DNA of 64,000 nt from Terriglobia bacterium (GTDB lineage: Bacteria > Acidobacteriota > Vicinamibacteria > Vicinamibacterales > CAVVIG01), in the NCBI GenBank assembly GCA_020073005.1, contig JAIQFX010000012.1, positions 36,476 to 100,475 of the forward strand, given 5' to 3'. Under the pieces are notes generated by a model that searched no databases, was not told where the DNA came from, and was given only the letters and a program-made list of their open reading frames with translations. Positions 4,435 through 51,852 of this stretch are shown in pieces. The position numbers and the translations under genes are program-made. Position 1 is the stretch's first letter; each line of letters opens with the position of its first letter.

Positions 4435-4445
4435 GCCGGCGGTCG

Positions 4446-5171
4446 TCAGCGGCCCTGAAGCGTGAAGTTGATCGTCACGGTCATCACGAGAGGGACCGCC
4501 ACGCCGTTGAGCAGCGTCGGCGTGTACTTCCACTGGCGCACGGCGTCGACGGCGGCTTGATCGAGGAGCGGAATCGATCGCAGGACGCGCACGGATGCAA
4601 CGTCGCCGTGCGTGTCGATGATCGCCTCGAGGATGACGACGCCTTCCTTCCGCGCCGCCGACGCGATCGCCGGATAGACCGGCGCGACATCGACGAGCTT
4701 TCGCGGCATCTGCATTCCTGAGTGAAGCCTGATCGGATCCTGCGGCGGCGCCGGTGGAGGCGTTCGCTCGACGATCGCGGCGCGCGGCTCTCCCGATCCA
4801 GGCTCGTGATCGACGCCGTCGATCACGCCAACCTGTTGCGTCTTCACGTCTTCGAATCCGGTCTCGGGGATGATTCCCGCCGGCGGAACAATCGGCGCCG
4901 CGTTGATCGATGCCGCGTGTTCGAGCGGCTTCTCTGCGCGCGTGCGTTGCGGCGGCGGCAATGGGATGTCGAGCAGCTGGATGGCGCGGATGCTCTCGAA
5001 CGACAGCGGGCGTCTCGGCGTCGGCAGCGGGCCGACGGCCAGCAACTGCGCGACGAGCAGGCTGGAGATGACGACGGCGTGAAGGACGATCGAGCAGACG
5101 GTGAGCGCGCGTCGAAGCGCGGCGCGCGAGGCAGGGCGTACGACGGCATCGCCGAACAGATCGCGCGGCAT
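4446..5171 (-). CDS. TonB family protein (energy transducer-like)
   Basis: A 241-residue inner-membrane protein with one N-terminal transmembrane segment (about residues 24-46, LTVCSIVLHAVVISSLLVAQ), a proline-rich periplasmic spacer (PPPQRT, PPPAPPQDP) and a C-terminal TonB domain. That domain is recognised by YPAIASAARKEGVVILEAIID, GDVASVRVLRSIPLLDQAAV and VRQWKYTPTLLNG. It would transmit proton motive force to TonB-dependent receptors, two of which lie further along. The ATG at 5171 has GGAGGG five bases upstream, so the ORF extension to 5192 is rejected. It ends 11 bases from the stop of the convergent surface protein. No exbB or exbD is adjacent. It may instead be one of the orphan TonB-C proteins common in this phylum. 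Confidence 0.85.
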   Translation of the reverse strand: MPRDLFGDAVVRPASRAALRRALTVCSIVLHAVVISSLLVAQLLAVGPLPTPRRPLSFESIRAIQLLDIPLPPPQRTRAEKPLEHAASINAAPIVPPAGIIPETGFEDVKTQQVGVIDGVDHEPGSGEPRAAIVERTPPPAPPQDPIRLHSGMQMPRKLVDVAPVYPAIASAARKEGVVILEAIIDTHGDVASVRVLRSIPLLDQAAVDAVRQWKYTPTLLNGVAVPLVMTVTINFTLQGR

Positions 5172-25495: not shown

Positions 25496-25569
25496 GGGTC
25501 CGACGGGGGTCAGATCGGGGTCGGACCGGGGTCGGACCGGGGTCGGACCCTGTTGCCAACACTGCAATG
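25495..25569 (-). repeat. GGGTCCGACCCC repeat array, locus A
   Basis: Read on the minus strand it runs CATTGCAGTGTTGGCAACA, then GGGTCCGACCCC and three further GGTC-[CT]GACCCC units. It starts at the stop codon of the ligase gene and ends 25 bases before the permease start. Loci B (37415-37482) and C (38712-38780) carry the same motif order. Confidence 0.7.
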
Positions 25570-28675: not shown

Positions 28676-28700
28676 TAGTTTGACCCGCCGTTCAATTTCA

Positions 28701-30344
28701 ATGATCACTTTCGAGACGCGCCCCGACACCTATCACCACTGGAAACTGACGTTCGACGGTCCCGTGGCGACGCTTTCAATGGACGTCCGCGAGGACGCCG
28801 GGCTCTCGAGCGAGTACCGCCTCAAGCTGAACTCGTACGACCTCGCCGTCGACATCGAGCTGGCCGACGCGCTGCAGCGCCTCCGCTTCGAGCACCCCGA
28901 GGTCCACGCCGTCATCGTGACGTCGCTCAAAGAGCGGATCTTCTGCGCCGGCGCGAACATCATGATGCTGCGCGGCTCGTCGCACGGCGCGAAGGTGAAC
29001 TTCTGCAAGTTCACCAACGAGACGCGTCTCGCGATGGAGGACGCCAGCGCCCATTCCGGCCTCAAGTTCCTCGCGGCTCTCAACGGCATCTGCGCGGGCG
29101 GTGGCTACGAGCTGGCGCTCGCGTGCGACGAGATTCTGCTCGTCGACGACGGCAACTCGGCCGTCAGCCTGCCGGAAGCGCCGCTGCTCGGCGTCCTGCC
29201 CGGCACGGGCGGCCTGACGCGCCTCGTCGACAAGCGGCGCGTGCGCCGCGATCTCGCCGACTTCTTCAGCACGCTCGTGGAAGGCGTGAAAGGGAAGCGC
29301 GCGGTCGACTGGCGGCTCGTGGACGCGGTCGCGCCGACGAGCCGGTTCAAGGACGCCGTGCAATCGCGCGCGCGCGAACTTGCCGCGACATCGGATCGCC
29401 CGGCGAGCGGCCCCGGCATCGCCTTGAAGCCGCTCAACCCGACCGTGACCGACTCCGCCGTGACGTACTCGGCCGTCGCGCTCGCGCTGCATCGCGACAA
29501 GCGGACGGCTGAGCTCACCGTCCACGCGCCGAGCGGTCCGCAGCCGACGTCTTCGACAATGGGGCCGGCCGAGATTCTCGCGGCCGGCGATCAATTCTGG
29601 GCGCTGCGCGCGTTCCGCGAGCTCGACGATGCGCTGCTGCGGCTGCGCGTGAACGAACCCGAGATCGGCACGGTGGTGATTCGCGCGGACGGCGATCGCG
29701 ACGCCGTGCTGGCGATCGACCGCGCGCTCGTCGCGCACCAAACGCACTGGCTCGTGCGCGAGATCATCCATTTCATGAAGCGGACGCTGAAGCGCCTGGA
29801 CCTGACCGCGCGCAGCTTCTTCGCCTTCATCGAGCCGGGCTCGGCGTTCGCCGGATCGCTCTTCGAGCTGGCGCTGGCCGCCGACCGCTCGTACATGTTC
29901 CACGACGATCAGGAAGAGAACGTCGTCGCGCTCTCGCCGATGAACGCCGGTCCGCTGCCGATGAGCAATGGACTGACGCGGCTGCAGACGCGCTTTCTCG
30001 AACGCGCGGACACCATCGCCGGACTGCTGGCGCACGAGGGCCCGTTCAACGCCGGAGACGCGGAGAACGCGGGCCTCGTCACGTTCGCGCCGGACGAGAT
30101 CGACTGGGACGATGAAGTGCGGCTCGCCGTCGAGGCGCGCGCGACGTTCTCGCCGGACGCGATGACCGGGCTCGAGGCGAACCTGCGCTTCGCCGGGCCC
30201 GAGACGATGGAGACGAAGATCTTCGGACGGCTGACGGCGTGGCAGAACTGGATCTTCCAGCGCCCGAACGCCGTCGGCGCGAAGGGCGCGCTGCAGGCGT
30301 ACGGACAACAGGGAAGGCCGGAGTTCGACTGGAAGCGGACCTAA
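28701..30344 (+). CDS. boxC: 2,3-epoxybenzoyl-CoA dihydrolase (BoxC)
   Basis: A 547-residue crotonase-superfamily protein of the aerobic benzoyl-CoA pathway. It hydrolytically opens the epoxide of 2,3-epoxybenzoyl-CoA to 3,4-dehydroadipyl-CoA semialdehyde and formate. The length (~550, twice a normal crotonase), the N-terminal block ETRPDTYHHWKLTFDGPVAT, the oxyanion-hole region LKERIFCAGANIMML and NGICAGGGYELALACDEI, and adjacency to boxB all support this call. The ATG at 28701 is chosen; TTG at 28680 would add seven residues, and neither has a good ribosome-binding site. It is the first gene of a box operon divergent from tetR. Confidence 0.93.
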   Translation: MITFETRPDTYHHWKLTFDGPVATLSMDVREDAGLSSEYRLKLNSYDLAVDIELADALQRLRFEHPEVHAVIVTSLKERIFCAGANIMMLRGSSHGAKVNFCKFTNETRLAMEDASAHSGLKFLAALNGICAGGGYELALACDEILLVDDGNSAVSLPEAPLLGVLPGTGGLTRLVDKRRVRRDLADFFSTLVEGVKGKRAVDWRLVDAVAPTSRFKDAVQSRARELAATSDRPASGPGIALKPLNPTVTDSAVTYSAVALALHRDKRTAELTVHAPSGPQPTSSTMGPAEILAAGDQFWALRAFRELDDALLRLRVNEPEIGTVVIRADGDRDAVLAIDRALVAHQTHWLVREIIHFMKRTLKRLDLTARSFFAFIEPGSAFAGSLFELALAADRSYMFHDDQEENVVALSPMNAGPLPMSNGLTRLQTRFLERADTIAGLLAHEGPFNAGDAENAGLVTFAPDEIDWDDEVRLAVEARATFSPDAMTGLEANLRFAGPETMETKIFGRLTAWQNWIFQRPNAVGAKGALQAYGQQGRPEFDWKRT

Positions 30345-30350
30345 TTGCGT

Positions 30351-30439
30351 CATGTGGTCATCTGGGTATCTCGTCAATGCCGGTGGCCCAATGCTCCAAT
30401 CAATGACGAGATAACCAGATGACTCGATGACCACATTCA
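30351..30439. repeat. MITE-like inverted-repeat element, copy 3
   Basis: It fills most of the 105-bp boxC-boxB gap. The right end ATGACTCGATGACCACATTCA matches the ends of copies at 5973-6075 and 8097-8193. The left end has a small internal deletion. The element ends ten bases before the boxB ATG. Confidence 0.7.
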
Positions 30440-30449
30440 ACGAGGCGAG

Positions 30450-31868
30450 ATGATCTCCGCCGAGAAGATCCCCAACAACGTCAACCTCTCGAGCAACAAG
30501 CGGCTGCAGCGCGCGCTCGAGCACTGGCAGCCGAAGTACATCCAGTGGTGGCGCGACATGGGGCCGCAGGGCTTCCAGGACCATCACCAGGTTTACGTCC
30601 GGACGGCGGTGAGCGTGGATCCCGAAGGCTGGGCACATTTCGAGTACGTGAAGCTGCCGGAGTACCGCTGGGGCATCTTCCTCGCCGATCCCGTTCACGA
30701 TCGCCGCATCGGCTTCGGCGATTTCTTCGGGCAGCCCGTCTGGCAGGAAGTGCCGGGCGAATTCCGCAACCAGCTCCGCCGCTTGATCGTGACGCAGGGC
30801 GACACCGAGCCGGCGAGCGTCGAGCAGCAGCGGCTGCTCGGCCAGCGGTGCCCGAGCCTCTACGATCTGCGCAATCTCTTTCAGGTGAACGTCGAGGAAG
30901 GCCGTCATCTCTGGGCGATGGTCTACCTGCTGCATTCGTACTTCGGCCGCGATGGACGAGACGAGGCGGAGGAGCTGCTCGAGCGGCAGAGCGGCAACCG
31001 CGACAAGCCGCGCATCCTGCAGGCGTTCAACGAACCGATCGACAACTGGCTCGACTTCTTCATGTTCACGATGTTCACCGATCGCGACGGCAAGTCGCAG
31101 CTGATGTCGCTGTCGGAGAGCTCGCTCGATCCGCTGGCGCGCACGACGCGCTTCATGCTGACCGAGGAAGCGCATCACATGTTCGTCGGCGAGACCGGGG
31201 TCGCGCGCATCCTCGAGCGCACGTGCCAGCTCATGAAGGAGGCGGGCTACTCCGGCGACGTGCGGAAGCTGGGCGGCATCGACCTGCCGATGATCCAGAA
31301 GCACCTGAATCAGTGGTTCAGCCTGAGCCTCGATCTGCACGGCAGCGAAGTGTCGAGCAACGCGGCGTCCTACTTCGCCAATGGTCTCAAAGGGCGCGCG
31401 AAGGAGGACACCTTCGGCGAGCACGTCGTGAAGGACGCAGTCTACAATATGGAGTTCTTCGAAGGCGGCAAGGCGGTCACGAAGGACATCCTGATGCGCA
31501 ACGCGATGAACGAAGTGCTGCGTGACTGGTACGTCGGTGACTGCGCCGCGGGCGTCGAGCGCTGGAACCGCATCCTCGAGAGCTACGGCTTCTCCGAGCG
31601 CCTGCGGCTGCCCGACCGCAAGTTCAACCGCGGCATCGGGATGTATGCGGGCTTCCACTTCGATCCGAACGGCGTGCCGCTGTCGGACGAGATGTGGGAG
31701 CGGCGCAAGTACGAGTGGCTGCCGTCGGCGGCCGACACGGAATACCTGCTGAGCATCATGGCGACGCCGGTGTTCGAGCCCGGCAAGTTCGCGAATTACA
31801 TCGCCCCTCCACGCCGCGGGATCAATCAACAACCGATCGACTTCGAGTACGTCCGGACCGAGCAGTGA
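30450..31868 (+). CDS. boxB: Benzoyl-CoA 2,3-epoxidase oxygenase subunit (BoxB)
   Basis: A 472-residue class I diiron monooxygenase that epoxidises benzoyl-CoA at the 2,3 position. Recognisable parts are the N-terminal KIPNNVNLSSNKRLQRALEH and WRDMGPQGF, the diiron helices NVEEGRHLWAMVYLLHSYF and LTEEAHHMFVGETG, and the C-terminal DRKFNRGIGMYAGFHFDPNG. BoxA, the FAD/ferredoxin reductase that feeds it electrons, is not encoded in this window. Start ATG 30450 has GAGGCGAG directly upstream. Its stop overlaps the next start by four bases (GTGA). Confidence 0.95.
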   Translation: MISAEKIPNNVNLSSNKRLQRALEHWQPKYIQWWRDMGPQGFQDHHQVYVRTAVSVDPEGWAHFEYVKLPEYRWGIFLADPVHDRRIGFGDFFGQPVWQEVPGEFRNQLRRLIVTQGDTEPASVEQQRLLGQRCPSLYDLRNLFQVNVEEGRHLWAMVYLLHSYFGRDGRDEAEELLERQSGNRDKPRILQAFNEPIDNWLDFFMFTMFTDRDGKSQLMSLSESSLDPLARTTRFMLTEEAHHMFVGETGVARILERTCQLMKEAGYSGDVRKLGGIDLPMIQKHLNQWFSLSLDLHGSEVSSNAASYFANGLKGRAKEDTFGEHVVKDAVYNMEFFEGGKAVTKDILMRNAMNEVLRDWYVGDCAAGVERWNRILESYGFSERLRLPDRKFNRGIGMYAGFHFDPNGVPLSDEMWERRKYEWLPSAADTEYLLSIMATPVFEPGKFANYIAPPRRGINQQPIDFEYVRTEQ

Positions 31869-32629: not shown

Positions 32630-34087
32630 ATGACGACGAGCGTAATGCGCAAGCAACTCTTCATCAACAACGACTGGCGTGACGCGGCGGGCGGGAAGGT
32701 GCTCGAGGTCGTGAATCCGGCGACCGAGGACGTCATTGCCGAGGTCGCATCCGCCGAGCAGAGCGACGTGGACGCTGCCGTTGCGGCGGCGCGCGCGGCG
32801 CTCGACGGCCCGTGGGGCAGGATGTCGGCGCGCGAGCGCGGCAAGCTCGTCTGGAAGATCGGCGAGACGCTGCTCGAGCGCGCGGATGAAATCGCGCGGC
32901 TCGAGACGCTCCATAACGGCAAGCCGATTTTCGAGTCGCGCCAGATCGAAGTCCCGGCATCCGCCGAGTGCTTCCAGTACTACGCGGGCTGGGCGGACAA
33001 GATTCACGGCGAGACCGTCCCGGTCAAGGGCAACTACCTGACCTACACGCTGCGCGAGCCGGTCGGCGTCATCGCGGCGATCGTGCCGTGGAATTTTCCG
33101 CTGCTGCTGACGTCGTGGAAAGTCGCGCCGGCGCTCGCGTGCGGCAACACGGTCATCATCAAGCCCGCGAGCCAGACGCCGCTGACGGCGATCGCGCTGG
33201 CGGAAGTCGCGAAGGACGTCGGCCTGCCGCCCGGCGTGCTCAACGTGATCACGGGGCCGGGATCGAAGGTCGGGCAGATGCTCGTCGATCATCCCGGCAT
33301 CGACAAGATCGCATTCACCGGCGACACGTCGACCGGCAAGCAGATCATGCGCGGCTCGTCGGAGTCGCTCAAGCGGATCACGCTCGAGCTCGGCGGCAAG
33401 TCACCCAATATCGTCTTTCCCGACGCCGACCTCGACGCCGCGATCCGCGGCGCGACGACCGGCATCTTCTACGGCAAGGGCGAAGTCTGCGCGGCCGGAT
33501 CGCGGCTGCTCGTGGACAAGTCGATCAAGAACGAGTTCATCGACAAGGTCGCCGCGCGCGCGAAGAAGATGGCGCCTGGCGACCCGATGGATCCGAAGAC
33601 GCGGCTCGGCGCGATCTCGTCGAAGAAGCAGCTCGAGACCGACCTGCGCTACATCGAGACCGCGAAGAAGGAAGGCGCGACGCTCGTCGCCGGCGGCGGC
33701 CGCGCCGATATCGGGACGGGGAAGGGCTACTTCCTGCAGCCGACGGTCTTCGATGGCGTCACGCCGTCGATGACGATCGCGCGCGAGGAGATCTTCGGGC
33801 CGGTGCTCGCCGCGATCGAGTTCGCGGACGTCGACGAAGCGATCGCGCGCGCCAACGATTCCACCTACGGCCTCGCCGCCGCGGTCTGGACGAAGGACAT
33901 CAAGAAGGCGCATTATGTCGCGCGCAAACTCCAGGCGGGCACAGTCTGGATCAACACCTACAACATCTACGACACGGCGGCGCCGTTCGGCGGCTACAAG
34001 CAAAGCGGCTTCGGCCGCGAGATGAGCGTCCACGCGCTCGAGCATTACACCCAGGTGAAAAGCGTATGGGTGGATCTGAATCAGTAG
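32630..34087 (+). CDS. Aldehyde dehydrogenase (NAD(P)+)
   Basis: A 485-residue enzyme of the classic aldehyde dehydrogenase superfamily that oxidises an aldehyde to the acid. The cofactor/active-site blocks are VPWNFPLLLTSWKVAPALACGNT, FTGDTSTGK, the catalytic glutamate in LELGGKSPN, the nucleophilic cysteine in GEVCAAGSR, and the C-terminal FGGYKQSGFGREMS. In its operon position it could oxidise the 3,4-dehydroadipyl-CoA semialdehyde made by BoxC, but it looks like a general betaine/aldehyde-type enzyme rather than a dedicated BoxD. ATG 32630 and ATG 32645 are both usable starts. Confidence 0.92.
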   Translation: MTTSVMRKQLFINNDWRDAAGGKVLEVVNPATEDVIAEVASAEQSDVDAAVAAARAALDGPWGRMSARERGKLVWKIGETLLERADEIARLETLHNGKPIFESRQIEVPASAECFQYYAGWADKIHGETVPVKGNYLTYTLREPVGVIAAIVPWNFPLLLTSWKVAPALACGNTVIIKPASQTPLTAIALAEVAKDVGLPPGVLNVITGPGSKVGQMLVDHPGIDKIAFTGDTSTGKQIMRGSSESLKRITLELGGKSPNIVFPDADLDAAIRGATTGIFYGKGEVCAAGSRLLVDKSIKNEFIDKVAARAKKMAPGDPMDPKTRLGAISSKKQLETDLRYIETAKKEGATLVAGGGRADIGTGKGYFLQPTVFDGVTPSMTIAREEIFGPVLAAIEFADVDEAIARANDSTYGLAAAVWTKDIKKAHYVARKLQAGTVWINTYNIYDTAAPFGGYKQSGFGREMSVHALEHYTQVKSVWVDLNQ

Positions 34088-34590: not shown

Positions 34591-35835
34591 CTAGCGCTGC
34601 GTCAGCACCATCGCGATCGTCAGGACGATCATGACGACGACCGTCACCCACGCGATGACGTTGAACGTGCGCGTGTTGACCTGATCGCCCATCAGCTCCT
34701 TGTCGTTGGTCAGCAGCAGCATGAAGATCAGCACGAACGGCAGGACGGCGCCGTTGACGACCTGCGACAGCACGATGACGTGCACTTGCGGAAAGCGGGG
34801 GATCAGCAACACTCCGGCGCCCGCGACGATCAGCACGGTATAGAGCCAGTAGAACACCGGCGCTTCGTGGAACTGCTTGTCCAACCCTGATTCGAATCCC
34901 AGGCCTTCGCAGACGGCGTAGGACGTCGAGATCGGCAGAATCGACGCGGCGAAAAGCGACGCGTTGAACAGGCCGGCCGCGAACAGCAGGTACGCGTACT
35001 CGCCTGCGAGCGGCCGCAGCGCCTGCGCCGCGTCGGCGGCGTCCTTGATTTCAGTACGGCCCGTCACGAAGAGCGTGGCCGCGCACGCGACGATGATGAA
35101 CCACGCGACGACGTCCGTGAACAGACAGCCGAGGATGACGTCCCACCGCGACATCCGGTACTGCTTCGGCGTGATGCCTTTTTCAACAATGGACGCCTGC
35201 AGATAGAACTGCATCCACGGCGCGATCGTCGTGCCGACCAGGCCGATCACCATGAACAAGTAGCCGTAATTGCGAATGCCGATCGTCGACGGCCGGCTGA
35301 CCGTGGCGATGGCGGCCGCCTTCCAGTCGGGATGCGCCAGCAGGCCCGCGATGATGTAGCAGACGTAGAAGCCCGATGCGAGCAGGAAGAGTTTTTCGAC
35401 GCTGTTGTAGGTGCCGCGAACGACCATCAGCCAGACGACGCCCGCGGCGAGCGGGACCACGATGTACTTCGACAGGCCGAACAGCTCCATGCTGCTCGCG
35501 ACGCCGGCGAACTCGGCGACGACGTTGCCGAAATTGGTGACGACGAGCGCGAGCATCAGCCAGAACGTGACGCGAAACCCGAACTCCTCGCGGATGAGAT
35601 CGCTCAGGCCCTTGCCGGTCGCCGCGCCCATGCGCGCGGCCATCTCCTGCACGACCACGAGCGCGATCGTGATCGGGATCATCGTCCAGAGCAGCGAGTA
35701 GCCGAACTGCGCGCCGGCCAATGAGTACGTGAAGATGCCGCCCGCGTCGTTGTCCACGTTCGCGGTGATGAAGCCCGGTCCGACGATCGCCAGGAAGAAC
35801 ACAATCCGGCCGCGCCATGTCTTGAAGAAGGTCAT
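34591..35835 (-). CDS. Nramp-family divalent metal transporter (probable Mg2+/Mn2+ type)
   Basis: A 414-residue inner-membrane transporter with about 11 transmembrane helices and the LeuT-like Nramp layout. The TM1 unwound region reads GPGFITANVDNDAGG (Asp28, Asn29, Asp30) in place of the classic DPGN. The TM6 site reads T-T-I-A205-P-W where transition-metal Nramps have a methionine followed by Pro-His. Loss of that methionine is expected to weaken Fe/Mn selectivity over Mg. It follows the PRC/MgtE-N/CBS gene by eight bases on the same strand, under an M-box riboswitch, which supports magnesium transport. Direction of transport is assumed inward. Confidence 0.88.
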   Translation of the reverse strand: MTFFKTWRGRIVFFLAIVGPGFITANVDNDAGGIFTYSLAGAQFGYSLLWTMIPITIALVVVQEMAARMGAATGKGLSDLIREEFGFRVTFWLMLALVVTNFGNVVAEFAGVASSMELFGLSKYIVVPLAAGVVWLMVVRGTYNSVEKLFLLASGFYVCYIIAGLLAHPDWKAAAIATVSRPSTIGIRNYGYLFMVIGLVGTTIAPWMQFYLQASIVEKGITPKQYRMSRWDVILGCLFTDVVAWFIIVACAATLFVTGRTEIKDAADAAQALRPLAGEYAYLLFAAGLFNASLFAASILPISTSYAVCEGLGFESGLDKQFHEAPVFYWLYTVLIVAGAGVLLIPRFPQVHVIVLSQVVNGAVLPFVLIFMLLLTNDKELMGDQVNTRTFNVIAWVTVVVMIVLTIAMVLTQR

Positions 35836-35843
35836 GGCCGGCC

Positions 35844-37082
35844 TCAGTCGTCGTGTCGCAGCATCGTAATCACATCGTCTGCCGTGATGATGCCGGCGAC
35901 ACGGCTATGCTCATCGACGACGGCGAGCGTGATCAGGTTGTACTTGTCAAACAGCGCGGCGACTTCCGTCTCCGGCGTGTCGGCGGGGCAGGAGACGGCC
36001 TCGTCGCTCAGGTTGACGAGCGGCGCCGCCGGCGAGCTCGTTGCGATCTTCAGCAGCGGGACGGCGCCCACGAGCTTGTGGCCTTCGCCCGTCAGATAAA
36101 TTGTCGCGGCCGCTTCGTAGCCGCCTTCAAACCGTTTCAGCGCCTCGATCGCATCGTCGACGACGGCCTCGGCTCGGACGGAGATGAACTGCGTCGTCAT
36201 GTGGCCCGCGGCCGTGTGCTCGCCGAATTCGAGGAGCTGCGTGACCTCGCGGCGCTCGTCGGGCTGCATCTCCTTCAGAATCTGGCCCGACTGGTCCTCC
36301 GGCAGATCGCCGAGCAGGTCGGCCGCGGCGTCGGGGTCCATCTCCTCGACGATGTCGGCGGCGCGGTCCTTGTCCAGCGATTCGACGATCGCCTTCTTGA
36401 CGTCCGGATCGAGCTCTTCGAGCGTCTCGGCGGCGACCTCTTCGTCGATCGTTTCGAAGACGGCCTCGCGTTCGGCGGGCGGAAGGTCCTCGACGATGTT
36501 GGCGATGTCCGCGGGGTGGAGCTTCTCGAGTCCCTCGTACGCGATGTTCAGCTTGACGCGGCGCGCCGGGTCGGTCTCGAGGAGGTCGACGTACTGCCAC
36601 GGGATCACGCGCGGCGGAATCCGCTCGAGCAGTGCGCGCAGCGTGAACGACGGGACGACGCCCTTTGAGAGACGGCGAATGGCGCCGCGGGCGCCGACGT
36701 CGACCGAGACGACGTTGAGCAGCAGGTGGCTGTTGACCGGCGTCGATTCCATTTCGACGTCGTTGACGCGGACGACTTTGCGGCCGTGCACGTCGATGAT
36801 CTGCTGGTCGAGCAGATCGCGCTTGAGGAGCAGCACGCCGTCGGAAACGGAGTAGGGCTCCCACGACGACGATTCGGTCGCCGCGCGGACCGTCGCGCCG
36901 GCCGACGTCAGGATATCCGGACGGAGAATCCGCTCGCCGTCATTCGTCCTGACGACGAGAAACGCGACACGGGTCGGATGGTCCTGCGGTGCGATCGCGA
37001 GCTCGCGCACGCGTCCCCGCACGGTGCCGGTGGCATCGCGAACGGTCGCGCCGAGGAGTTCGGACAGAGCGACGAGGGACAT
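35844..37082 (-). CDS. PRC-barrel / MgtE N-terminal / CBS domain protein (soluble Mg-sensor-like)
   Basis: A 412-residue cytoplasmic protein. PRC-barrel-like segments occupy about residues 1-160 (LSELLGATVRDATGTVRGRV, DVHGRKVVRVNDV). A MgtE-N superhelix follows at about 180-290 (LHPADIANIVEDLPPAEREAVF, DPDAAADLLGDLPEDQSGQIL, LEFGEHTAAGHMTTQFISV). A CBS pair fills about 290-412 (LITLAVVDEHSRVAGIITADDVI). This is the Mg2+-sensing cytosolic half of an MgtE channel without its membrane domain. The adjacent Nramp-like permease probably serves as the membrane partner. The leader holds the M-box. No ribosome-binding site precedes the ATG, because a TTTTCAGTTTTCGG-type repeat fills the last ~45 bases. 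Confidence 0.9.
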   Translation of the reverse strand: MSLVALSELLGATVRDATGTVRGRVRELAIAPQDHPTRVAFLVVRTNDGERILRPDILTSAGATVRAATESSSWEPYSVSDGVLLLKRDLLDQQIIDVHGRKVVRVNDVEMESTPVNSHLLLNVVSVDVGARGAIRRLSKGVVPSFTLRALLERIPPRVIPWQYVDLLETDPARRVKLNIAYEGLEKLHPADIANIVEDLPPAEREAVFETIDEEVAAETLEELDPDVKKAIVESLDKDRAADIVEEMDPDAAADLLGDLPEDQSGQILKEMQPDERREVTQLLEFGEHTAAGHMTTQFISVRAEAVVDDAIEALKRFEGGYEAAATIYLTGEGHKLVGAVPLLKIATSSPAAPLVNLSDEAVSCPADTPETEVAALFDKYNLITLAVVDEHSRVAGIITADDVITMLRHDD

Positions 37083-37479
37083 GAAACTGAAAACCTAAAA
37101 CCGAAAACTGAAAACGGAACAGGAAAACCTGGAATCCGGGCAGGCGGAGCGATGGAAGGAGTATCCCCTCTCGTCCAAGCTTCAGCACCGCGCTCCGTGA
37201 AGGCCTCGACGATCGTTGGCCTAGCCACGTTAGGAAAACCCTTGAGCCGGGAGTTCCTGTTCTACCCCGCGCGGTCTCTCTCGAAACCGGCGGGACAGTG
37301 GCTTGTGTGTTGCGCGGGAGCCTCGCCTACCGAGGACCCTGCGATCGCACGCGCACGCGCGCGATCCGATCGCGTTTCACTCAGTGTCACGCGCTCGCGC
37401 GTGGACTGTCAAGACAACATTGCAGAAATTTCAACAGGGTCCGACCCCGGTCCGACCCCGGTCCGACCCTGGTCGGACC
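37083..37479. other. 397-bp non-coding leader region
   Basis: From left to right it holds a CTGAAAAC/CCTAAAACC repeat run (37085-37130), the M-box expression platform and aptamer (37145-37335), an alternating CGCGCACGCGCGCGATCC-type tract (about 37340-37375), and the left part of repeat locus B (37415 onward). No protein-coding gene is supported. Confidence 0.7.
37167..37335 (-). promoter_or_regulatory. M-box (ykoK-type) Mg2+ riboswitch
   Basis: Read 5' to 3' on the minus strand, five blocks match the M-box consensus in order. They are GGTAGGCGAGGCTCC (37331-37317; consensus GUUAGGUGAGGCUCC), AGCCACTGTCCC (37303-37292), TTTCGAGAGAGACC, GGGGTAGAACAGGAACTCC (37268-37250), and GGTGCTGAAGCTTGGACGA (37189-37171; consensus AGUGCUAAAGCUCUACGA). 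AGCCAC (37303-37298) pairs with GTGGCT (37228-37223), and the outer P1 is CCTCG with CGAGAGG. A possible switch exists: CGGAGCG inside the aptamer (37197-37191) is complementary to CGCTCCG just downstream (37151-37145). No T-run follows, so control may be translational or Rho-dependent. Confidence 0.8.
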
Positions 37480-37482
37480 TCA
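37415..37482 (+). repeat. GGGTCCGACCCC repeat array, locus B
   Basis: CAACATTGCA, a short spacer, then TTTCAACAGGGTCCGACCCC and further GGTCCGACC units, running up to the stop codon (37480-37482) of the barrel gene. It has the same orientation as locus C, so the two copies flank that gene as direct repeats ~1.3 kb apart. Confidence 0.7.
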
Positions 37483-38718
37483 GTGCGCGTGCACGTGCGC
37501 CGTCGATCGAATCGGACGCCACCGGAGAAACACGTGGAAGGAGCGCGAGCCGTCGTAGAACTGCAGGAGGTCTGGCGACGGGTGATACGCGGTGATGTCG
37601 GCGCCGACGCCGAGCCGGCCGCGCACGACGCTCGCGACGTTCGGCAGATCCCAGACGGCGCCCGTCGTCAGCGCGTCGACGTGCGAGTAATAGTGCGGAT
37701 GCGTGAAGCCGGCCGGATGCAGACCCAGACCGAAGAGCTCCTTTTCGGTGACCTCCGCGCGTCCGTAGATCGTCGTGCTCGGCGTCGCGCGGCAGTCCCA
37801 CTCGAGGAGGAAGGCGTCCGAGACGCCGTTGGCGACGATCGCCTGGCGATTCTCACCCCACGCGAACGTCGCCGACAGCGGCCGCGACACGACGTTGCCG
37901 CTGAATCCGATCGACGCCGTCAGCCGCGTGACGTCGTACGGCTCGTACCACTCCGGCTTGTCCAGGTGACCGGCGGAGAACTGCGCCTGCCATGCCCCGC
38001 GATGCCAGCTGATGCGGCCGGAGTATGAATCCAGCCGCGGCGTGTCGATGTTCGTCCGGTTCTCGTCCGGTTCCTCACCGCGAAAGGCGGACGCCTCGAA
38101 CGTCAGCGATCCAGTTTCCACGCCGGCGGTCAGCACGCCGGTCGTGATGTGCGTGGAATCGAGATAGTGATGCGTGAGCGGCACCTGCGGGTTGTCGCGC
38201 GCGGATTCACGATGCATGAACGCGGTCGGGCCAAGCGCGGGCGAGCCCACCAGGTCCGCGGTGAATGCGAGCGTGACGGGCGCGACGTCGATCTTGTACG
38301 TGGCGCCGAGACCCATGAACAAATCATGCGGATGCTGGTAGTTGACGAGCGGCACGTTCTGATAGCTCTCGCCGGTCTGGTAGATCTGTGGTGAGCCGAT
38401 GCCCTCGAGCGTGAACGGCTCGAGCGACAGCATGCCGTCGAGCGTCAGCCGTCCCTTGCCGACCTCTCGCGTGCCGTCGAGCATGAACCAGTTCTGCGAC
38501 TCCCAGGCCCAGAAGTCCGCGAACTTGCGCTGCTGGTAGTTGTAGCCGTAGAAAACGTTGGCGTCGGTCGCCCACGTCCACGCGGCACTCGGCGACGGCT
38601 CGGCCATGTGAATATGCTCCGGCGGGTGCTGTTCCGGATCCTGCGCGCGCGCGCTCGTGGTCATCGTCATCAGCATGCCAATCGCGAGCAGGACGGAGAA
38701 TTGGATCGTTCGCAACAT
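37480..38718 (-). CDS. Putative outer-membrane beta-barrel protein, copper-locus associated
   Basis: A 412-residue exported protein (signal MLRTIQFSVLLAIGMLMTMTTSARAQ) followed by a His-rich segment (EQHPPEHIHMAEP), many alternating aromatic strands (FYGYNYQQRKF, WFMLDGTREVGKGRLTLDGMLSLEPF), and a His-rich C-terminus (HVHAH). The strand pattern suggests a 14-18-stranded outer-membrane barrel. No family is recognised. The end histidines and proximity to copC suggest a metal-related role (inference). The ATG at 38718 lies inside the CAACATTGCA part of repeat locus C. The longer ORF to 38820 only translates the repeat and is rejected. Confidence 0.75.
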   Translation of the reverse strand: MLRTIQFSVLLAIGMLMTMTTSARAQDPEQHPPEHIHMAEPSPSAAWTWATDANVFYGYNYQQRKFADFWAWESQNWFMLDGTREVGKGRLTLDGMLSLEPFTLEGIGSPQIYQTGESYQNVPLVNYQHPHDLFMGLGATYKIDVAPVTLAFTADLVGSPALGPTAFMHRESARDNPQVPLTHHYLDSTHITTGVLTAGVETGSLTFEASAFRGEEPDENRTNIDTPRLDSYSGRISWHRGAWQAQFSAGHLDKPEWYEPYDVTRLTASIGFSGNVVSRPLSATFAWGENRQAIVANGVSDAFLLEWDCRATPSTTIYGRAEVTEKELFGLGLHPAGFTHPHYYSHVDALTTGAVWDLPNVASVVRGRLGVGADITAYHPSPDLLQFYDGSRSFHVFLRWRPIRSTAHVHAH

Positions 38719-38780
38719 TGCAAAAACTGCAACAGGGTCCGACCCCGGTCTGACCCCGGTCCGACCCGTGTCGGACCCTT
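38712..38780 (+). repeat. GGGTCCGACCCC repeat array, locus C
   Basis: GCAACATTGCAAAAACTGCA, ACAGGGTCCGACCCC, GGTCTGACCCC, GGTCCGACCC and TCGGACCC in sequence. It carries the start codon of the barrel gene on the complementary strand (38716-38718) and lies directly before the palindromic operator candidate. Confidence 0.75.
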
Positions 38781-38790
38781 GTGTTAACCT

Positions 38791-38814
38791 GATCGTGTTC
38801 ATGTGAACACGATC
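38791..38814. promoter_or_regulatory. Perfect 11-2-11 palindrome, candidate operator
   Basis: GATCGTGTTCA-TG-TGAACACGATC is a perfect inverted repeat located between the divergent barrel gene and copC, 16 bases before the copC ATG. The symmetry and length fit a dimeric repressor site (TetR/MarR-type). No regulator gene is adjacent. Confidence 0.55.
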
Positions 38815-38829
38815 GTACACGGAGGAGCG

Positions 38830-48480: not shown

Positions 48481-49500
48481 CTGTGAAGATGTCGGCCAGC
48501 CGAACTTGAAGAAGTACGCGCCGGCGGCGACGAGCAGCGCGCCGATCCACATGCGACTCGCGAGCAGGACCGCGCCGACGAGCACGACGGCGACGCCTGC
48601 GGCGTGACGCCCGCGCATCAGGCGCGCGAGCGAGCCGCGTCCGAGCGCGCTGGCGATCAACGTCACGAAAAACGCCAGGCTCGCGCCGAGGACGACGGCC
48701 GCGCCGGTCGGCACGAGAAACCGGTTCGACACGATCAGTCCGCCCGCGCCGGCGACGAACGCCACCGCCACGCTCCAGACGAGATACCCGCGCGCGCTGC
48801 GCGCGACATTGCGCGACGCCGCGGCCGGCACGACGACGAGCGCCTCGACGAGGAGCGCGCCGATGATCTTCAGGCTGACGACAATCGACAGCGCGAGCAG
48901 GAACGCGAAGAAGTAGTCGAGGAACCGCGAGTCCGATCCCTCGACGCCCGCGAGCGGCGGGCTCAGGCTGTCGAGCAGCAGATGGTTGTACTCGCGCGCG
49001 AGCAGCGCCATCACGACGACGCCGACCGCGAGCAGCAGCAATAGATCGCTGTCGGTCACGGTCAGCAGGCTGCCGAAGAGGATCGCTTCGACCTGATGCA
49101 CGTTGAACTGCCGCGTGACGGCGACGAGCAGCACGAGTCCGAGGCCGAGCGACAGCGCGAGAAAGACACCGATGAGTGTGTCGGGCGGCAGCGACGACCG
49201 CCGTTTGACGTACACCATGCCGAGCGTCGCGAGCAGGCAGAAGCCGAACATGCCGGCGTACGGCGAGTTCAGCGGCTCGCCGATCAAGAGTCCGAGCGAC
49301 ACGCCGGTCAGGGCGGCTTGTCCGAGCGCCGCGCTGAAGAACGCCATGCGTCGCGCGACCACGAGGTGGCTCAGGCCGCCGAGCATCGGCGTCAGCAGCA
49401 GGACGCACAGGAAGCCGCGGACGAGAAACGGATACTGGAAGTCGGCGGGCAGAACGCCGCTGTGCGCCAGACTGGTTACCCACGCGTAGAACGGCGTCAT
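48460..49500 (-). CDS. Metal ABC transporter permease (Zn/Mn ZnuB type), system A
   Basis: A 346-residue inner-membrane permease of the ABC-3 family with eight to nine transmembrane helices (GLSHLVVARRMAFFSAALGQAALTGVSLG, FNVHQVEAILFGSLL, LKIIGALLVEALVVVPAAASRNVARS). It carries zinc or manganese across the membrane with the ATPase encoded just upstream. Its ATG overlaps that gene's stop by four bases. The C-terminal SSQRPTTND is encoded by the tandem repeat at 48463-48480 and is unlikely to be ancestral. It is longer than the system B permease (256 residues). Confidence 0.92.
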   Translation of the reverse strand: MTPFYAWVTSLAHSGVLPADFQYPFLVRGFLCVLLLTPMLGGLSHLVVARRMAFFSAALGQAALTGVSLGLLIGEPLNSPYAGMFGFCLLATLGMVYVKRRSSLPPDTLIGVFLALSLGLGLVLLVAVTRQFNVHQVEAILFGSLLTVTDSDLLLLLAVGVVVMALLAREYNHLLLDSLSPPLAGVEGSDSRFLDYFFAFLLALSIVVSLKIIGALLVEALVVVPAAASRNVARSARGYLVWSVAVAFVAGAGGLIVSNRFLVPTGAAVVLGASLAFFVTLIASALGRGSLARLMRGRHAAGVAVVLVGAVLLASRMWIGALLVAAGAYFFKFGWPTSSQRPTTND

Positions 49501-50204
49501 GCGAGCGCGTCCGCCGGTGCGCCGTCGGCCACGACGCGCGTATCCAGGACCGTCACACGATCGCCGTGGCGTTTCACGCGCTCGTGATCGTGCGACACCA
49601 TGAGCACGGTGACATCGTCTCGATCGCGTGCCGCCAGCAGGACGTCTTCGAGCCATTGGCTCGCGGTCTGATCGAGTCCGGTTGCCGGCTCGTCGAGGAT
49701 CAGCAGCTCTGGCAGCGGATCGAGCGCGTGCGCGAGCAGCACGCGTCGCAGCTCGCCGCCCGAGAGCACGGACAGTTGACGCTGTTCGAATCCCGCGAGG
49801 CCGACGCCAACGAGCATCGCGCCGATGCGCCGCCTGGCGTCGTGGCCGACGCCGAAGCAGACGGGACGGCGCTGGCGCGTGAGCGCGAGGAAATCGGCGA
49901 CCGTGACCGGCAGCGTGCGGTCGACCGCGAAGCTTTGCGGCACGTAGCCGATGCGGCCGTTGCGCCGCCAGTGCGCGAGGATGCGGCCTTCGAATCGGAT
50001 CTGCCCGAGGATCGCGTTGACGAGCGTGCTCTTGCCGGCGCCGTTCGGTCCGACGATCGCGTGCAGCGTCCCGCGCGCGATCGAAAGCGAGACGTCGGAG
50101 AGCAGCGTCTGGCCGTCGATCCGGACCGTGAGGTTCGAGACGTCGAGAATTGATGACGACGTCGACGGCGTCGGCGTCGTGGAAAAAGTCGCGACGGCGC
50201 TCAT
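49497..50204 (-). CDS. Metal ABC transporter ATP-binding protein, system A
   Basis: A 235-residue ABC ATPase. Walker A is GPNGAGKST, the signature is LSGGELRRVLLAHAL, Walker B is LLILDEP, and the H-loop is MVSHDHER. The Q-loop region (IGYVPQSFAVDRTLPVTVADF) is characteristic of the zinc/manganese uptake group. It overlaps both neighbours by four bases, so permease A, this ATPase and the binding protein are tightly coupled. The N-terminus has a Ser/Thr-rich extension (VATFSTTPTPSTSSS). Confidence 0.93.
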   Translation of the reverse strand: MSAVATFSTTPTPSTSSSILDVSNLTVRIDGQTLLSDVSLSIARGTLHAIVGPNGAGKSTLVNAILGQIRFEGRILAHWRRNGRIGYVPQSFAVDRTLPVTVADFLALTRQRRPVCFGVGHDARRRIGAMLVGVGLAGFEQRQLSVLSGGELRRVLLAHALDPLPELLILDEPATGLDQTASQWLEDVLLAARDRDDVTVLMVSHDHERVKRHGDRVTVLDTRVVADGAPADALA

Positions 50205-51112
50205 CCCTCGTTGACCAGCGCCCGGATCATCGTGTCCACGTTCCGCTGCATCTCTTTCTCGAACTTGTCCGGCGTGTACGCGCCCGACGCGATGTGCGTG
50301 ATCGTGTAGACCTTCACGCCGGCTTCGTCCCGCAGCACCTTGAGCAGCGCGGGCGGAAACGTGTCCTCGCTGAAGACGACGCGAATCTTCTCGCGCTTGA
50401 GGAGCGCGACCATGTCCTTCAGCTCGCCGGCCGACGGCGTCAGGCCGTGCTGCGGCTGGACGACGCCGGCGATTTCGAGGCCGAATTCCTGCAGCAGATA
50501 ACCGTAACCGTCATGCACCGTGACGACGCGGTTGATCTTCGCGTCGGCGAGCGCCGTGGCGGCGCGCGCCTTGATCTGCCGCAGCCGTCGCGCGTAGTCG
50601 GCGGCGTTGGCCTGCAGCGCGGACGCGTCCGACGGCCGGAGCGCCGCGATCGCCTTCTGAATCGCGTAAGTCTGCTGAATCGCGTTCGTGAACGAGATGA
50701 ACGTGTGCGAGTTCACGCCGGATCCGTGAGCCGCGTGAATCTGAGGCGTCGACTCGTTGACGCGGATGATGACCAGCTTCTTGTTGCCGGACGCCTTGAT
50801 CATCGGGTTGATGAAGTCGTCGTGGCCGATGCCGTTGATGACGATCGCGTCGAGGTCCATCAGTTTCTTGATGTCCTCGGGCCGCGGCTGATAGTCGCCC
50901 GCGTCGATCTCGCCGGGCAGGATCGATCGCACTTCGTATCCGGGCAGCGTCCCGACGACGTTCGCCGTCCAGGAGTAATACGGATGCAGCGTGACGCCGA
51001 TCTTCAGCGTCGGCCGCGGCTGCGCCGACGCGGTCGCCGCGAAAAGCAGCGCCGCGACGATGAGCAGTCCGGTGGCGTCCGCCTTCAGGCGGACCAGCAG
51101 TCTGTGAATCAT
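50201..51112 (-). CDS. Metal ABC transporter substrate-binding protein (ZnuA type)
   Basis: A 303-residue periplasmic cluster A-I binding protein for zinc or manganese. Metal-ligand candidates are the histidine in TLHPYYSWTANVVG, GIGHDDFI, AAHGSGVNSHTFISF and the acidic SEDTFPPALL. The His-rich charged loop of many ZnuA proteins is absent. The first ~17 residues (MIHRLLVRLKADATG) are encoded across a palindromic repeat (51077-51094), ahead of the hydrophobic signal core LLIVAALLFAATASAQ. It is the only binding protein for two permease-ATPase pairs in this operon. Confidence 0.92.
   Translation of the reverse strand: MIHRLLVRLKADATGLLIVAALLFAATASAQPRPTLKIGVTLHPYYSWTANVVGTLPGYEVRSILPGEIDAGDYQPRPEDIKKLMDLDAIVINGIGHDDFINPMIKASGNKKLVIIRVNESTPQIHAAHGSGVNSHTFISFTNAIQQTYAIQKAIAALRPSDASALQANAADYARRLRQIKARAATALADAKINRVVTVHDGYGYLLQEFGLEIAGVVQPQHGLTPSAGELKDMVALLKREKIRVVFSEDTFPPALLKVLRDEAGVKVYTITHIASGAYTPDKFEKEMQRNVDTMIRALVNEG
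51077..51094. repeat. Short palindromic repeat (TTCA-loop family)
   Basis: GTCCGCCTTCAGGCGGAC forms an 8-bp stem. It lies inside the signal-peptide coding region of the metal-binding protein and encodes VRLKAD on the minus strand. Confidence 0.7.
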
Positions 51113-51789
51113 GGGGTTTTCACCGTGGGTGGCGGAACGTAGCCGATCGCGGGCGGATTCACGCGCAGCTGAATCCAGCCTTCAGCCTGCGGGACCTGGA
51201 CGAGCGCGGGCGACAGCTCGGCGCCGTCGGTGTGCGTCCACACCGAAACGTGCAGCATCATGCCGTGCGGCAGGCGGTGGTGCTCTTCGTCCTCGGGCGA
51301 CGGATCGGGCAGCGAGTCGGGCAGCGGCTCCTGGACGAGCAGCAACCACGCGGGGGCGCCCGTCACGCCCGGAATGCCGCGATAGTTGATGAACGCGCCG
51401 CGATGCGTGACGATCCAGCGGTACGCGGGGCCCTTCGCCGTCGGATCCTTCGCAAACGGCGGAATGCCCTGCTCGGCGAGCGCATCGGGCGACGGCCATC
51501 CGCCGGTGTCGCTGCGCACGCGCTCCGCTTCGAGCAGTCCTTCCTGCAGCTCACGAAACATCAGCTGCGCCGGCGACGCGGCGTCGCTGACGAGCGTCTG
51601 GTAGGGCAGCAGGCCGTTGGCGCGCGCGGGCTTGCCGTCCACGCTCCACGCGGTGTTGGCGAGATAGAAGCCGACGATCGCGACGATGACCACGGCCAGG
51701 CGCACGACGATTGTCGTTTCCTCGCGCAGCGACGGCGGGCGGATCTCGACGGTGCGGATTCCCGCGCCCTGTCCCGAGTCAACGGCCAT
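51109..51789 (-). CDS. Membrane-anchored protein of a zinc-uptake locus (DUF6162-like)
   Basis: A 226-residue protein with one N-terminal transmembrane segment (VVRLAVVIVAIVGFYLANTAWS) and a periplasmic domain (LMFRELQEGLLEAERVRSDTG, YRWIVTHRGAFINYRGIPG, LPHGMMLHVSVWTHTDG). It is reminiscent of uncharacterised proteins found in zinc ABC operons, but the family assignment is tentative. Its stop overlaps the binding protein's start by four bases. ATG 51789 has GGAG eleven bases upstream; GTG 51822 would add eleven residues with no ribosome-binding site. Perhaps it assists metal loading (inference). Confidence 0.65.
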   Translation of the reverse strand: MAVDSGQGAGIRTVEIRPPSLREETTIVVRLAVVIVAIVGFYLANTAWSVDGKPARANGLLPYQTLVSDAASPAQLMFRELQEGLLEAERVRSDTGGWPSPDALAEQGIPPFAKDPTAKGPAYRWIVTHRGAFINYRGIPGVTGAPAWLLLVQEPLPDSLPDPSPEDEEHHRLPHGMMLHVSVWTHTDGAELSPALVQVPQAEGWIQLRVNPPAIGYVPPPTVKTP

Positions 51790-51852
51790 CTGACGGGATT
51801 CTCCGTCACCGGGTTGTCGCACATCAAGTGGGGACGAAGAAGTCGTTTCGCG

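What the first reader, a model, noticed from the sequence alone, without database searches (positions are those of the whole stretch)
34591..37335. M-box Mg2+ riboswitch controlling a split MgtE-type sensor plus Nramp-like permease
Seen: five M-box sequence blocks in order, with pairing AGCCAC/GTGGCT, on the minus strand upstream of a soluble PRC/MgtE-N/CBS protein. That gene is eight bases from an Nramp-like transporter with DNDAGG in TM1 and no TM6 metal-binding Met. Known: M-box RNAs sense Mg2+, MgtE-N/CBS domains gate MgtE by Mg2+, and Nramp-related Mg transporters exist in clostridia under M-box control. Inference: the sensor half of MgtE has been re-used as a detached regulator of an Nramp-type Mg2+ permease, giving double (RNA and protein) feedback.
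Basis: partly seen in the sequence, partly recalled or inferred. Interest (0 to 1): 0.82.

Follow-up and report, generated by a model that had tools for sequence, protein, structure and literature searches.

The report
Riboswitch-led magnesium sensor and transporter pair
An M-box RNA lies ahead of two neighbouring genes, one for a detached relative of the sensor half of the MgtE magnesium channel and one for an NRAMP-related permease, and together they likely let the cell shut off magnesium uptake both when making the proteins and when running them; this arrangement has been in print since 2014, but here the usual terminator does not follow the RNA.

Summary
An M-box aptamer (RF00380, 113.8 bits, cut-off 44) lies at 37159-37341 (-), 76 bases before a PRC/MgtE_N/CBS gene that ends 8 bases before an NRAMP-family gene. 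The permease is an NRMT: best solved relative EleNRMT (E=1.1e-107), with the published DxxG-TxxA ion site. Layout and feedback idea are not new: Shin et al. 2014 described M-box/MgtE-N-like/NrmT operons and speculated on cytoplasmic feedback. What I add: (1) the sensor gene lies just upstream in 25 of 25 testable NRMT orthologues of the order (26 in all), while the M-box was found in only 5 of 162 genomes, always on this operon; (2) after those five M-boxes no convincing intrinsic terminator was found, against 8 of 8 on relatives' operons; (3) a sister genome lacks the aptamer but keeps promoter-like elements and the leader's 3' end; (4) the sensor keeps acids that I recall as MgtE's N-domain/CBS Mg2+ ligands and lacks several that I recall elsewhere. 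Gating of the permease and its cargo (Mg2+ or Mn2+) remain untested here; in the one published co-expression test that I read of, the sensor gave no further rescue. New member of a known kind, with a variant RNA platform.

The parts
37383..37412 (-). promoter-like TTGACA-N18-GACACT
   Evidence: only match to this pattern in the window, 0.01 expected by chance; seen, with small changes, before the four M-box relatives and before M-box-less G020 and G022; the generic sigma-70 scan of the region lists none; not measured
37159..37341 (-). M-box (ykoK) Mg2+ riboswitch aptamer, RF00380
   Evidence: 113.8 bits, complete model; only one found in the genome
37083..37158 (-). 76-nt post-aptamer leader, pyrimidine-rich, no convincing intrinsic terminator; by eye no clear Shine-Dalgarno sequence
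35844..37082 (-). PRC/MgtE_N/CBS protein, predicted detached Mg2+ sensor (412 aa)
36219..36521 (-). MgtE_N domain (residues 188-288), with E219, D251 and D255 aligned to TtMgtE E59, D91 and D95
   Evidence: TtMgtE numbering and site roles recalled
35859..36218 (-). CBS pair (residues 289-408), with D403 aligned to TtMgtE D247; N382 stands where TtMgtE has D226
   Evidence: TtMgtE numbering and site roles recalled
35836..35843 (-). 8-base gap between the two genes
34591..35835 (-). NRMT-type NRAMP-related permease (414 aa)
35737..35751 (-). TM1 ion-site motif N29-D-A-G-G33 (DxxG)
   Evidence: motif from PMC8806188
35218..35232 (-). TM6 ion-site motif T202-T-I-A-P206 (TxxA)
   Evidence: motif from PMC8806188

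Best explanation
An M-box aptamer precedes two genes 8 bases apart, one for a PRC/MgtE_N/CBS protein without a membrane domain and one for an NRMT-type permease, and the RNA likely turns both genes off at high Mg2+ while the MgtE-like protein would bind the permease's inner face and close it when Mg2+ fills its acid pockets. Shown by sequence: the aptamer, the domains, the DxxG-TxxA ion site, the tight gene pair and its conservation. Inferred: Mg2+ as cargo, from the ion site, the M-box and published relatives. Inferred: feedback by the protein; acids that I recall at MgtE's N-domain/CBS interface are kept, while the protein ends where MgtE's plug helix (recalled) would begin, so the output would have to be rewired, perhaps with the conserved second PRC-like stretch as the docking part. 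Inferred: control by the RNA without an intrinsic terminator, through Rho or through translation.
For: M-box at full length over the cut-off. Best solved relative is the Mg2+ transporter EleNRMT, 364 bits against 112.9 for the best MntH, with the DxxG-TxxA site. The MgtE-like gene is upstream on the same strand in 25 of 26 NRMT orthologues of the order (48% identity or more), with gaps of -1 to 36 bases in 23, 85 in G024 and 343 in G030; the 26th, G028, ends at a contig end. In 77 other loci it is adjacent (within 700 bases) in 43, farther off in 10, not found in 18, untestable in 6. The 13 M-box loci found (5 of the order, 8 elsewhere, one of these a partial aptamer at a contig edge) all sit on this gene pair and all have NDAGG/TTIAP; in L145 the gene order is swapped and the M-box still leads. 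In 48 MgtE-like proteins the positions of TtMgtE D91, D95, G136 and D247 keep the residue in 43, 48, 44 and 44. The C-terminal half of the predicted structure fits the Mg2+-bound MgtE cytosolic domain 2yvy, TM 0.81 by target length.
Against: Published co-expression of an A. capsulatum pair gave no further Mg2+ rescue, and that permease is likely a Mn2+ transporter (PMC4072509). Ca_c0685 and Ca_c3329 complement without the MgtE-like protein. No MgtE-like gene was found in the fetched flanks of 18 of 71 testable related loci. TtMgtE D226 is Asn in 42 of 48; D214, E216 and D250 are acidic in 11, 19 and 5 of 48. No reliable natural fusion among the 120 proteins listed. My tethered fold cannot show an interface. 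In the window's family the M-box has no clear expression platform.
Confidence: 0.5

Rival explanations
1. The permease mainly carries Mn2+ and the MgtE-like protein senses or handles Mn2+; the M-box tunes it to Mg2+ status only as a side link.
For: A related A. capsulatum pair behaved as a Mn2+ importer (PMC4072509); EleNRMT itself also carries Mn2+ into liposomes (passages of PMC8806188); permeases of named Acidobacteriaceae isolates (Terriglobus, Granulicella, Edaphobacter, KBS 89) are 62-66% identical to the window's.
Against: The A. capsulatum locus has no observable M-box; the window has one. The 13 M-box loci all carry TTIAP, while 6 of 7 listed loci labelled Terriglobus, Granulicella or Edaphobacter carry TTITP; the A. 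capsulatum site itself was not found. The window's genome has a separate canonical DPGN/AxxM Nramp.
Confidence: 0.2
2. The MgtE-like protein does not gate NRMT but pairs with another target, for example the genome's full-length MgtE, or acts as a metal chaperone.
For: The genome has an MgtE with its membrane domain; G024 has an MgtE-like gene, an NRMT and a full-length MgtE in a row. Shin et al. name a chaperone role as the alternative.
Against: The gene pair is constant across the order's NRMT orthologues (25 of 25 testable) and mostly within 36 bases, which suggests joint synthesis with NRMT.
Confidence: 0.17
3. In this family the M-box is a decaying relic without switching power, and only the protein pair regulates.
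For: No convincing terminator in 5 of 5 family M-boxes against 8 of 8 with one on relatives' operons; by eye no clear Shine-Dalgarno sequence in the window and G034, though GGAAG in G019 and GGTGGG in G035 could serve; the aptamer is missing in G020 and G022 while promoter-like elements stay.
Against: The five aptamers score 113.8-119.8 bits and keep the core sequence across three genera, which a relic would not be expected to do.
Confidence: 0.12

Closest known systems
M-box / MgtE-like fragment / NrmT operons (Shin et al. 2014, PMC4072509; sections 11 and 12 read whole, passages of the rest)
   Same: Same three parts in the same order; the feedback idea was already voiced there.
   Different: Here an acidobacterial member that has an M-box (their tested acidobacterial example lacked one), without the intrinsic terminator that the paper describes for most M-boxes.
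EleNRMT (PDB 7qia; Ramanadane et al. 2022, PMC8806188; section 5 read, passages of the rest)
   Same: Best solved relative, E=1.1e-107, and the same DxxG-TxxA site.
   Different: A search of that text for CBS gave 0 occurrences and for MgtE 5, none about a partner protein.
MgtE Mg2+ channel cytosolic domain (2yvy, 2yvx, 8gpv)
   Same: MgtE_N and CBS domains, with recalled interface acids kept.
   Different: No membrane domain, and the protein ends where the plug helix (recalled) would begin; extra PRC region at the N-terminus.
Terminator-less M-box with a translational platform and Rho-dependent termination in mycobacteria (D'Halluin et al. 2026, PMC12810186; abstract, outline and first part of Results read)
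   Same: M-box with no canonical intrinsic terminator after the aptamer.
   Different: By eye no uORF with its own Shine-Dalgarno sequence in the window's 76-nt leader; different downstream genes; Rho control untested here.

Membership tests
M-box riboswitch (RF00380) | covariance-model match over the curated cut-off, full length | tested here: met
   113.8 bits against 44, positions 1-169
M-box riboswitch (RF00380) | upstream of a metal transport gene | tested here: met
   transport itself untested
M-box riboswitch (RF00380) | intrinsic terminator as platform (usual, not defining) | tested here: not met
   0 sites; best hairpin -8.6 kcal/mol, equalled or beaten by 6 of 60 shuffles
M-box riboswitch (RF00380) | Mg2+-dependent folding | not testable with these tools
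   needs probing of the RNA
NRMT (NRAMP-related magnesium transporter) | DxxG-TxxA/T ion site in place of DxxN-A/CxxM | tested here: met
   motif from PMC8806188
NRMT (NRAMP-related magnesium transporter) | closer to NRMTs than to canonical NRAMPs | tested here: met
   364 bits to EleNRMT against 112.9 to the best MntH; no tree with canonical members was built
NRMT (NRAMP-related magnesium transporter) | Mg2+ transport | not testable with these tools
   needs a transport assay
MgtE channel | MgtE_N and CBS domains | tested here: met
MgtE channel | MgtE transmembrane domain / NCBIfam mgtE equivalog cut-off | tested here: not met
   no PF01769 listed; 138.8 bits against 232.75
MgtE-like fragment of NrmT operons | soluble MgtE-N homologue beside an NrmT gene | tested here: met
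   definition from PMC4072509
Rho-dependent M-box | rut-like C-rich, G-poor stretch after the aptamer | tested here: inconclusive
   rut-like pattern in 3 of 5 family leaders (1 of 7 others), but in 59% of random 100-nt pieces of the window too; pyrimidine content reached by at most 0.7% of random window pieces in 4 of 5 leaders
Rho-dependent M-box | Rho-dependent termination at high Mg2+ | not testable with these tools
   two Rho RNA-binding-domain hits in the genome

The most novel reading that the evidence does not exclude
One Mg2+ sensor module, cut out of a channel and joined to a PRC docking part, has become a stand-alone brake on an unrelated carrier (LeuT-fold NRMT); in this acidobacterial family the same operon is also switched by an M-box that works without a terminator, by exposing a pyrimidine-rich leader to Rho or to the ribosome, giving RNA and protein feedback on one ion.
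Probability: 0.3. Interest if true: 0.65.

Novelty: new member of a known kind. Interest (0 to 1): 0.4.

Why it matters
The role of the MgtE-like protein beside NrmT was left open in 2014, and none of the papers listed by my searches (capped listings, titles and abstract starts) appeared to settle it. If it gates NRMT, a channel's sensor domain has been moved onto a carrier with a different fold and transport cycle, so Mg2+ sensing would be a portable module. The family also offers natural test material: M-boxes with and without terminators, a sister pair with and without the aptamer, and permeases with and without the sensor gene.

Tried and rejected
Natural fusion of sensor and permease: a joined query found only P0001 and P0002 with all three Pfam domains among the 120 proteins listed (of 1038 reported; 7997 candidates scored). 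Both are single-member entries, and by eye both have garbled stretches that look like frameshifts, so sequencing error is the simpler reading.

Tethered fold: reading through the stop between the in-frame genes of L073 gave pTM 0.70 for 830 residues against 0.44 for the window's sensor alone. One helix (401-433) runs unbroken across the artificial joint, so the tether sets the pose, and no inter-domain error was shown. Not used as evidence.

Rho site: the rut-like pattern is not above background (the background is the window for all five genomes). Anti-P1 helix between the aptamer's 3' end and the leader: in the five family cases 48-100% of shuffled leaders pair as well, and of the seven others only L141 stands out (3.7%). 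The terminator scan tested only even stem-loop lengths and missed L147 and L148; one search repeats it with all lengths.

Sensor adjacency against ion-site type: permeases with Ala at the TM6 site have it adjacent in 42 of 56, those with Thr in 1 of 15 (Fisher p=1.9e-6), but only 3-4 independent pairs exist on the tree and the sign test cannot reach significance, so no claim is made. A. capsulatum's own ion site: not found by name in the 120 hits listed of 7987. Papers with explicit MgtE site residues: no hit and none in the passages of PMC8104411, so site roles are recalled. Shine-Dalgarno and uORF statements rest on reading the leaders by eye.

Full report
Observation. The Rfam scan gives one hit in the window, the M-box RF00380 at 37159-37341 on the minus strand, complete and far above its cut-off. 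It is the only one found in the genome. Downstream come a 412-aa protein with MgtE_N and CBS domains and a weak PRC match, then after 8 bases a 414-aa Nramp-family protein.

What the permease is. Its best solved relative is 7qia (E=1.1e-107), then MntH chains at 1.9e-31 and weaker; PMC8806188 gives 7QIA as EleNRMT, an uncoupled Mg2+ transporter that also carries Mn2+ in liposomes (passages). TM1 reads NDAGG and TM6 GTTIAP, that is DxxG-TxxA, the NRMT signature of Ramanadane et al. 2022 (PMC8806188, section 5). A separate canonical Nramp with DPGN and GATVMP lies elsewhere in the genome, as do an MgtE with membrane domain and one CorA hit.

What the small protein is. Its C-terminal half aligns with the cytosolic domain of Thermus MgtE; the predicted structure (mean pLDDT 84.9, pTM 0.44) matches the Mg2+-bound form 2yvy at rmsd 2.5 over 232 columns. 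In 48 aligned proteins (window plus 47 named loci) the positions of TtMgtE D91, D95, G136 and D247 keep the residue in 43, 48, 44 and 44; E59 is acidic in 38. D226 is Asn in 42; D214, E216 and D250 are acidic in 11, 19 and 5. That the first group lines the N-domain/CBS interface and that several of the others lie towards the plug helix is recalled, not taken from a call. A second PRC-like stretch (residues 84-145, named by eye; Pfam matches 4-47 only) is about as conserved as MgtE_N (0.65 and 0.67) and more so than residues 1-80 (0.45).

Prior art. Shin et al. 2014 (PMC4072509; sections 11 and 12 read whole, passages elsewhere) found M-boxes before Nramp-related genes, mostly in Clostridia and Deltaproteobacteria, showed complementation of a Mg2+-import defect by two clostridial proteins, noted that most NrmT loci include a gene for an MgtE-N-like protein, and speculated on cytoplasmic feedback. 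They tested one acidobacterial pair, without an M-box: the permease rescued the Mn2+ defect fully and the Mg2+ defect only at low millimolar supply, and adding the MgtE-like protein did not help. The window is therefore a new member of that kind.

Conservation. In 162 genomes of the order, 26 carry a close NRMT orthologue (48% identity or more; a further NRMT fragment in G021 was not examined); the MgtE-like gene lies upstream on the same strand in all 25 where the contig allows a look, within 36 bases in 23, at 85 in G024 and at 343 in G030. M-boxes were found in 5 of 162, each on this operon, and in 2 of 396 genomes sampled across the phylum, both of this family; both searches used Infernal's stricter filters, so weak ones may be missed. 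Eight of the 77 have an M-box (one partial, at a contig edge), all with the pair adjacent, among them loci labelled Geobacteraceae or Geobacter (L140, L147, L148), Terriglobia (L132) and Acidobacteria gp13 (L137). All 13 M-box loci have NDAGG and TTIAP.

The RNA platform. All 8 M-boxes outside the family are followed by a hairpin and U-tract (-9.2 to -23.9 kcal/mol; for seven at most 1 of 60 shuffles does as well, for L148 5 of 60). In the five of the family the best is -1.2 to -8.6, and 6 to 37 of 60 shuffles do as well (the window itself -8.6 and 6 of 60). A pattern scan of the window's leader also finds none. The 70 bases after the aptamer are unusually rich in pyrimidine in four of five leaders (at most 0.7% of random pieces of the window are as rich); G035 is not exceptional at 7%. 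A terminator-less M-box has a published precedent, acting through translation and Rho in Mycobacterium (PMC12810186; abstract, outline and first part of Results read). Direct rut and anti-P1 evidence here is negative to inconclusive.

Loss of the aptamer. On the permease tree G019 (M-box) and G020 (none) are sisters (support 100/98) and G037 (M-box) is their next relative (98/91). G020 keeps the -35/-10-like elements and about 65 bases before the start codon, and lacks the aptamer between them. On 50 permeases the M-box label needs at least 6 changes. So the protein pair is the steadier part in this order and the RNA the optional one.

Mechanism. Likely order of events: at low Mg2+ both proteins are made and the sensor is open; as Mg2+ rises the N and CBS domains close on each other and the protein, docked on the permease's inner face, blocks the cycle; with lasting excess the M-box stops synthesis. 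Every step after 'both genes lie together' is inferred. The main doubts are the A. capsulatum result, the permeases without a sensor gene nearby, and the lack of any measured interaction.

Verdict.

Noticed in passing
L043 (G020) against L044 (G019), leader of the MgtE-like gene: Sister genomes: one has the M-box, the other lacks it while promoter-like elements and about 65 bases before the start codon are kept; G022 (L039) likewise has the promoter-like elements but no aptamer.
   Followed up: partly
L145, 4592-7568: Gene order swapped (permease then MgtE-like gene), yet the M-box still leads.
   Followed up: partly
L056 (G024), 871-5048: MgtE-like gene, NRMT (site TTITP) and a full-length MgtE lie in a row on one strand.
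   Followed up: partly
L058, L059, L060 (family f3): More distant NRMT-like permeases (37-38% identity) with a MgtE_N/CBS gene downstream instead of upstream; PRC confirmed in L058.
   Followed up: partly
named loci L076-L152: Permeases with Thr at the TM6 site or a non-Ala residue after the TM1 Asp have an adjacent sensor gene in 2 of 18 testable loci; strong raw association but too few independent events on the tree.
   Followed up: partly
L062-L066: Further Nramp-like paralogues in this order with DDDPSGI and GTTISPYL at the ion site (33-35% identity), no MgtE-like neighbour detected in the fetched stretches.
   Followed up: no
window 37480-38820 (-): 446-aa protein without a Pfam or NCBIfam match; homologous frames occur in the fetched loci of six relatives (L037, L038, L039, L045, L049, L057; in pieces in L037 and L038), so perhaps a conserved neighbour of unknown function.
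   Followed up: partly
window 28680-31868 (+): boxC and boxB (benzoyl-CoA epoxidation pathway, both over NCBIfam cut-offs), followed by an aldehyde dehydrogenase at 32630-34087.
   Followed up: partly
window 49497-51822 (-): ABC ATPase, ZnuA-like metal-binding protein and DUF6162 protein in a row, perhaps a zinc or manganese uptake set.
   Followed up: no
window 25519-25549 and about 37430-37480: GGTCGGACC repeats: three at 11-base spacing and one at 37471 on the + strand; by eye three more on the minus strand beside it, between the 37480-38820 gene and the promoter-like site.
   Followed up: no
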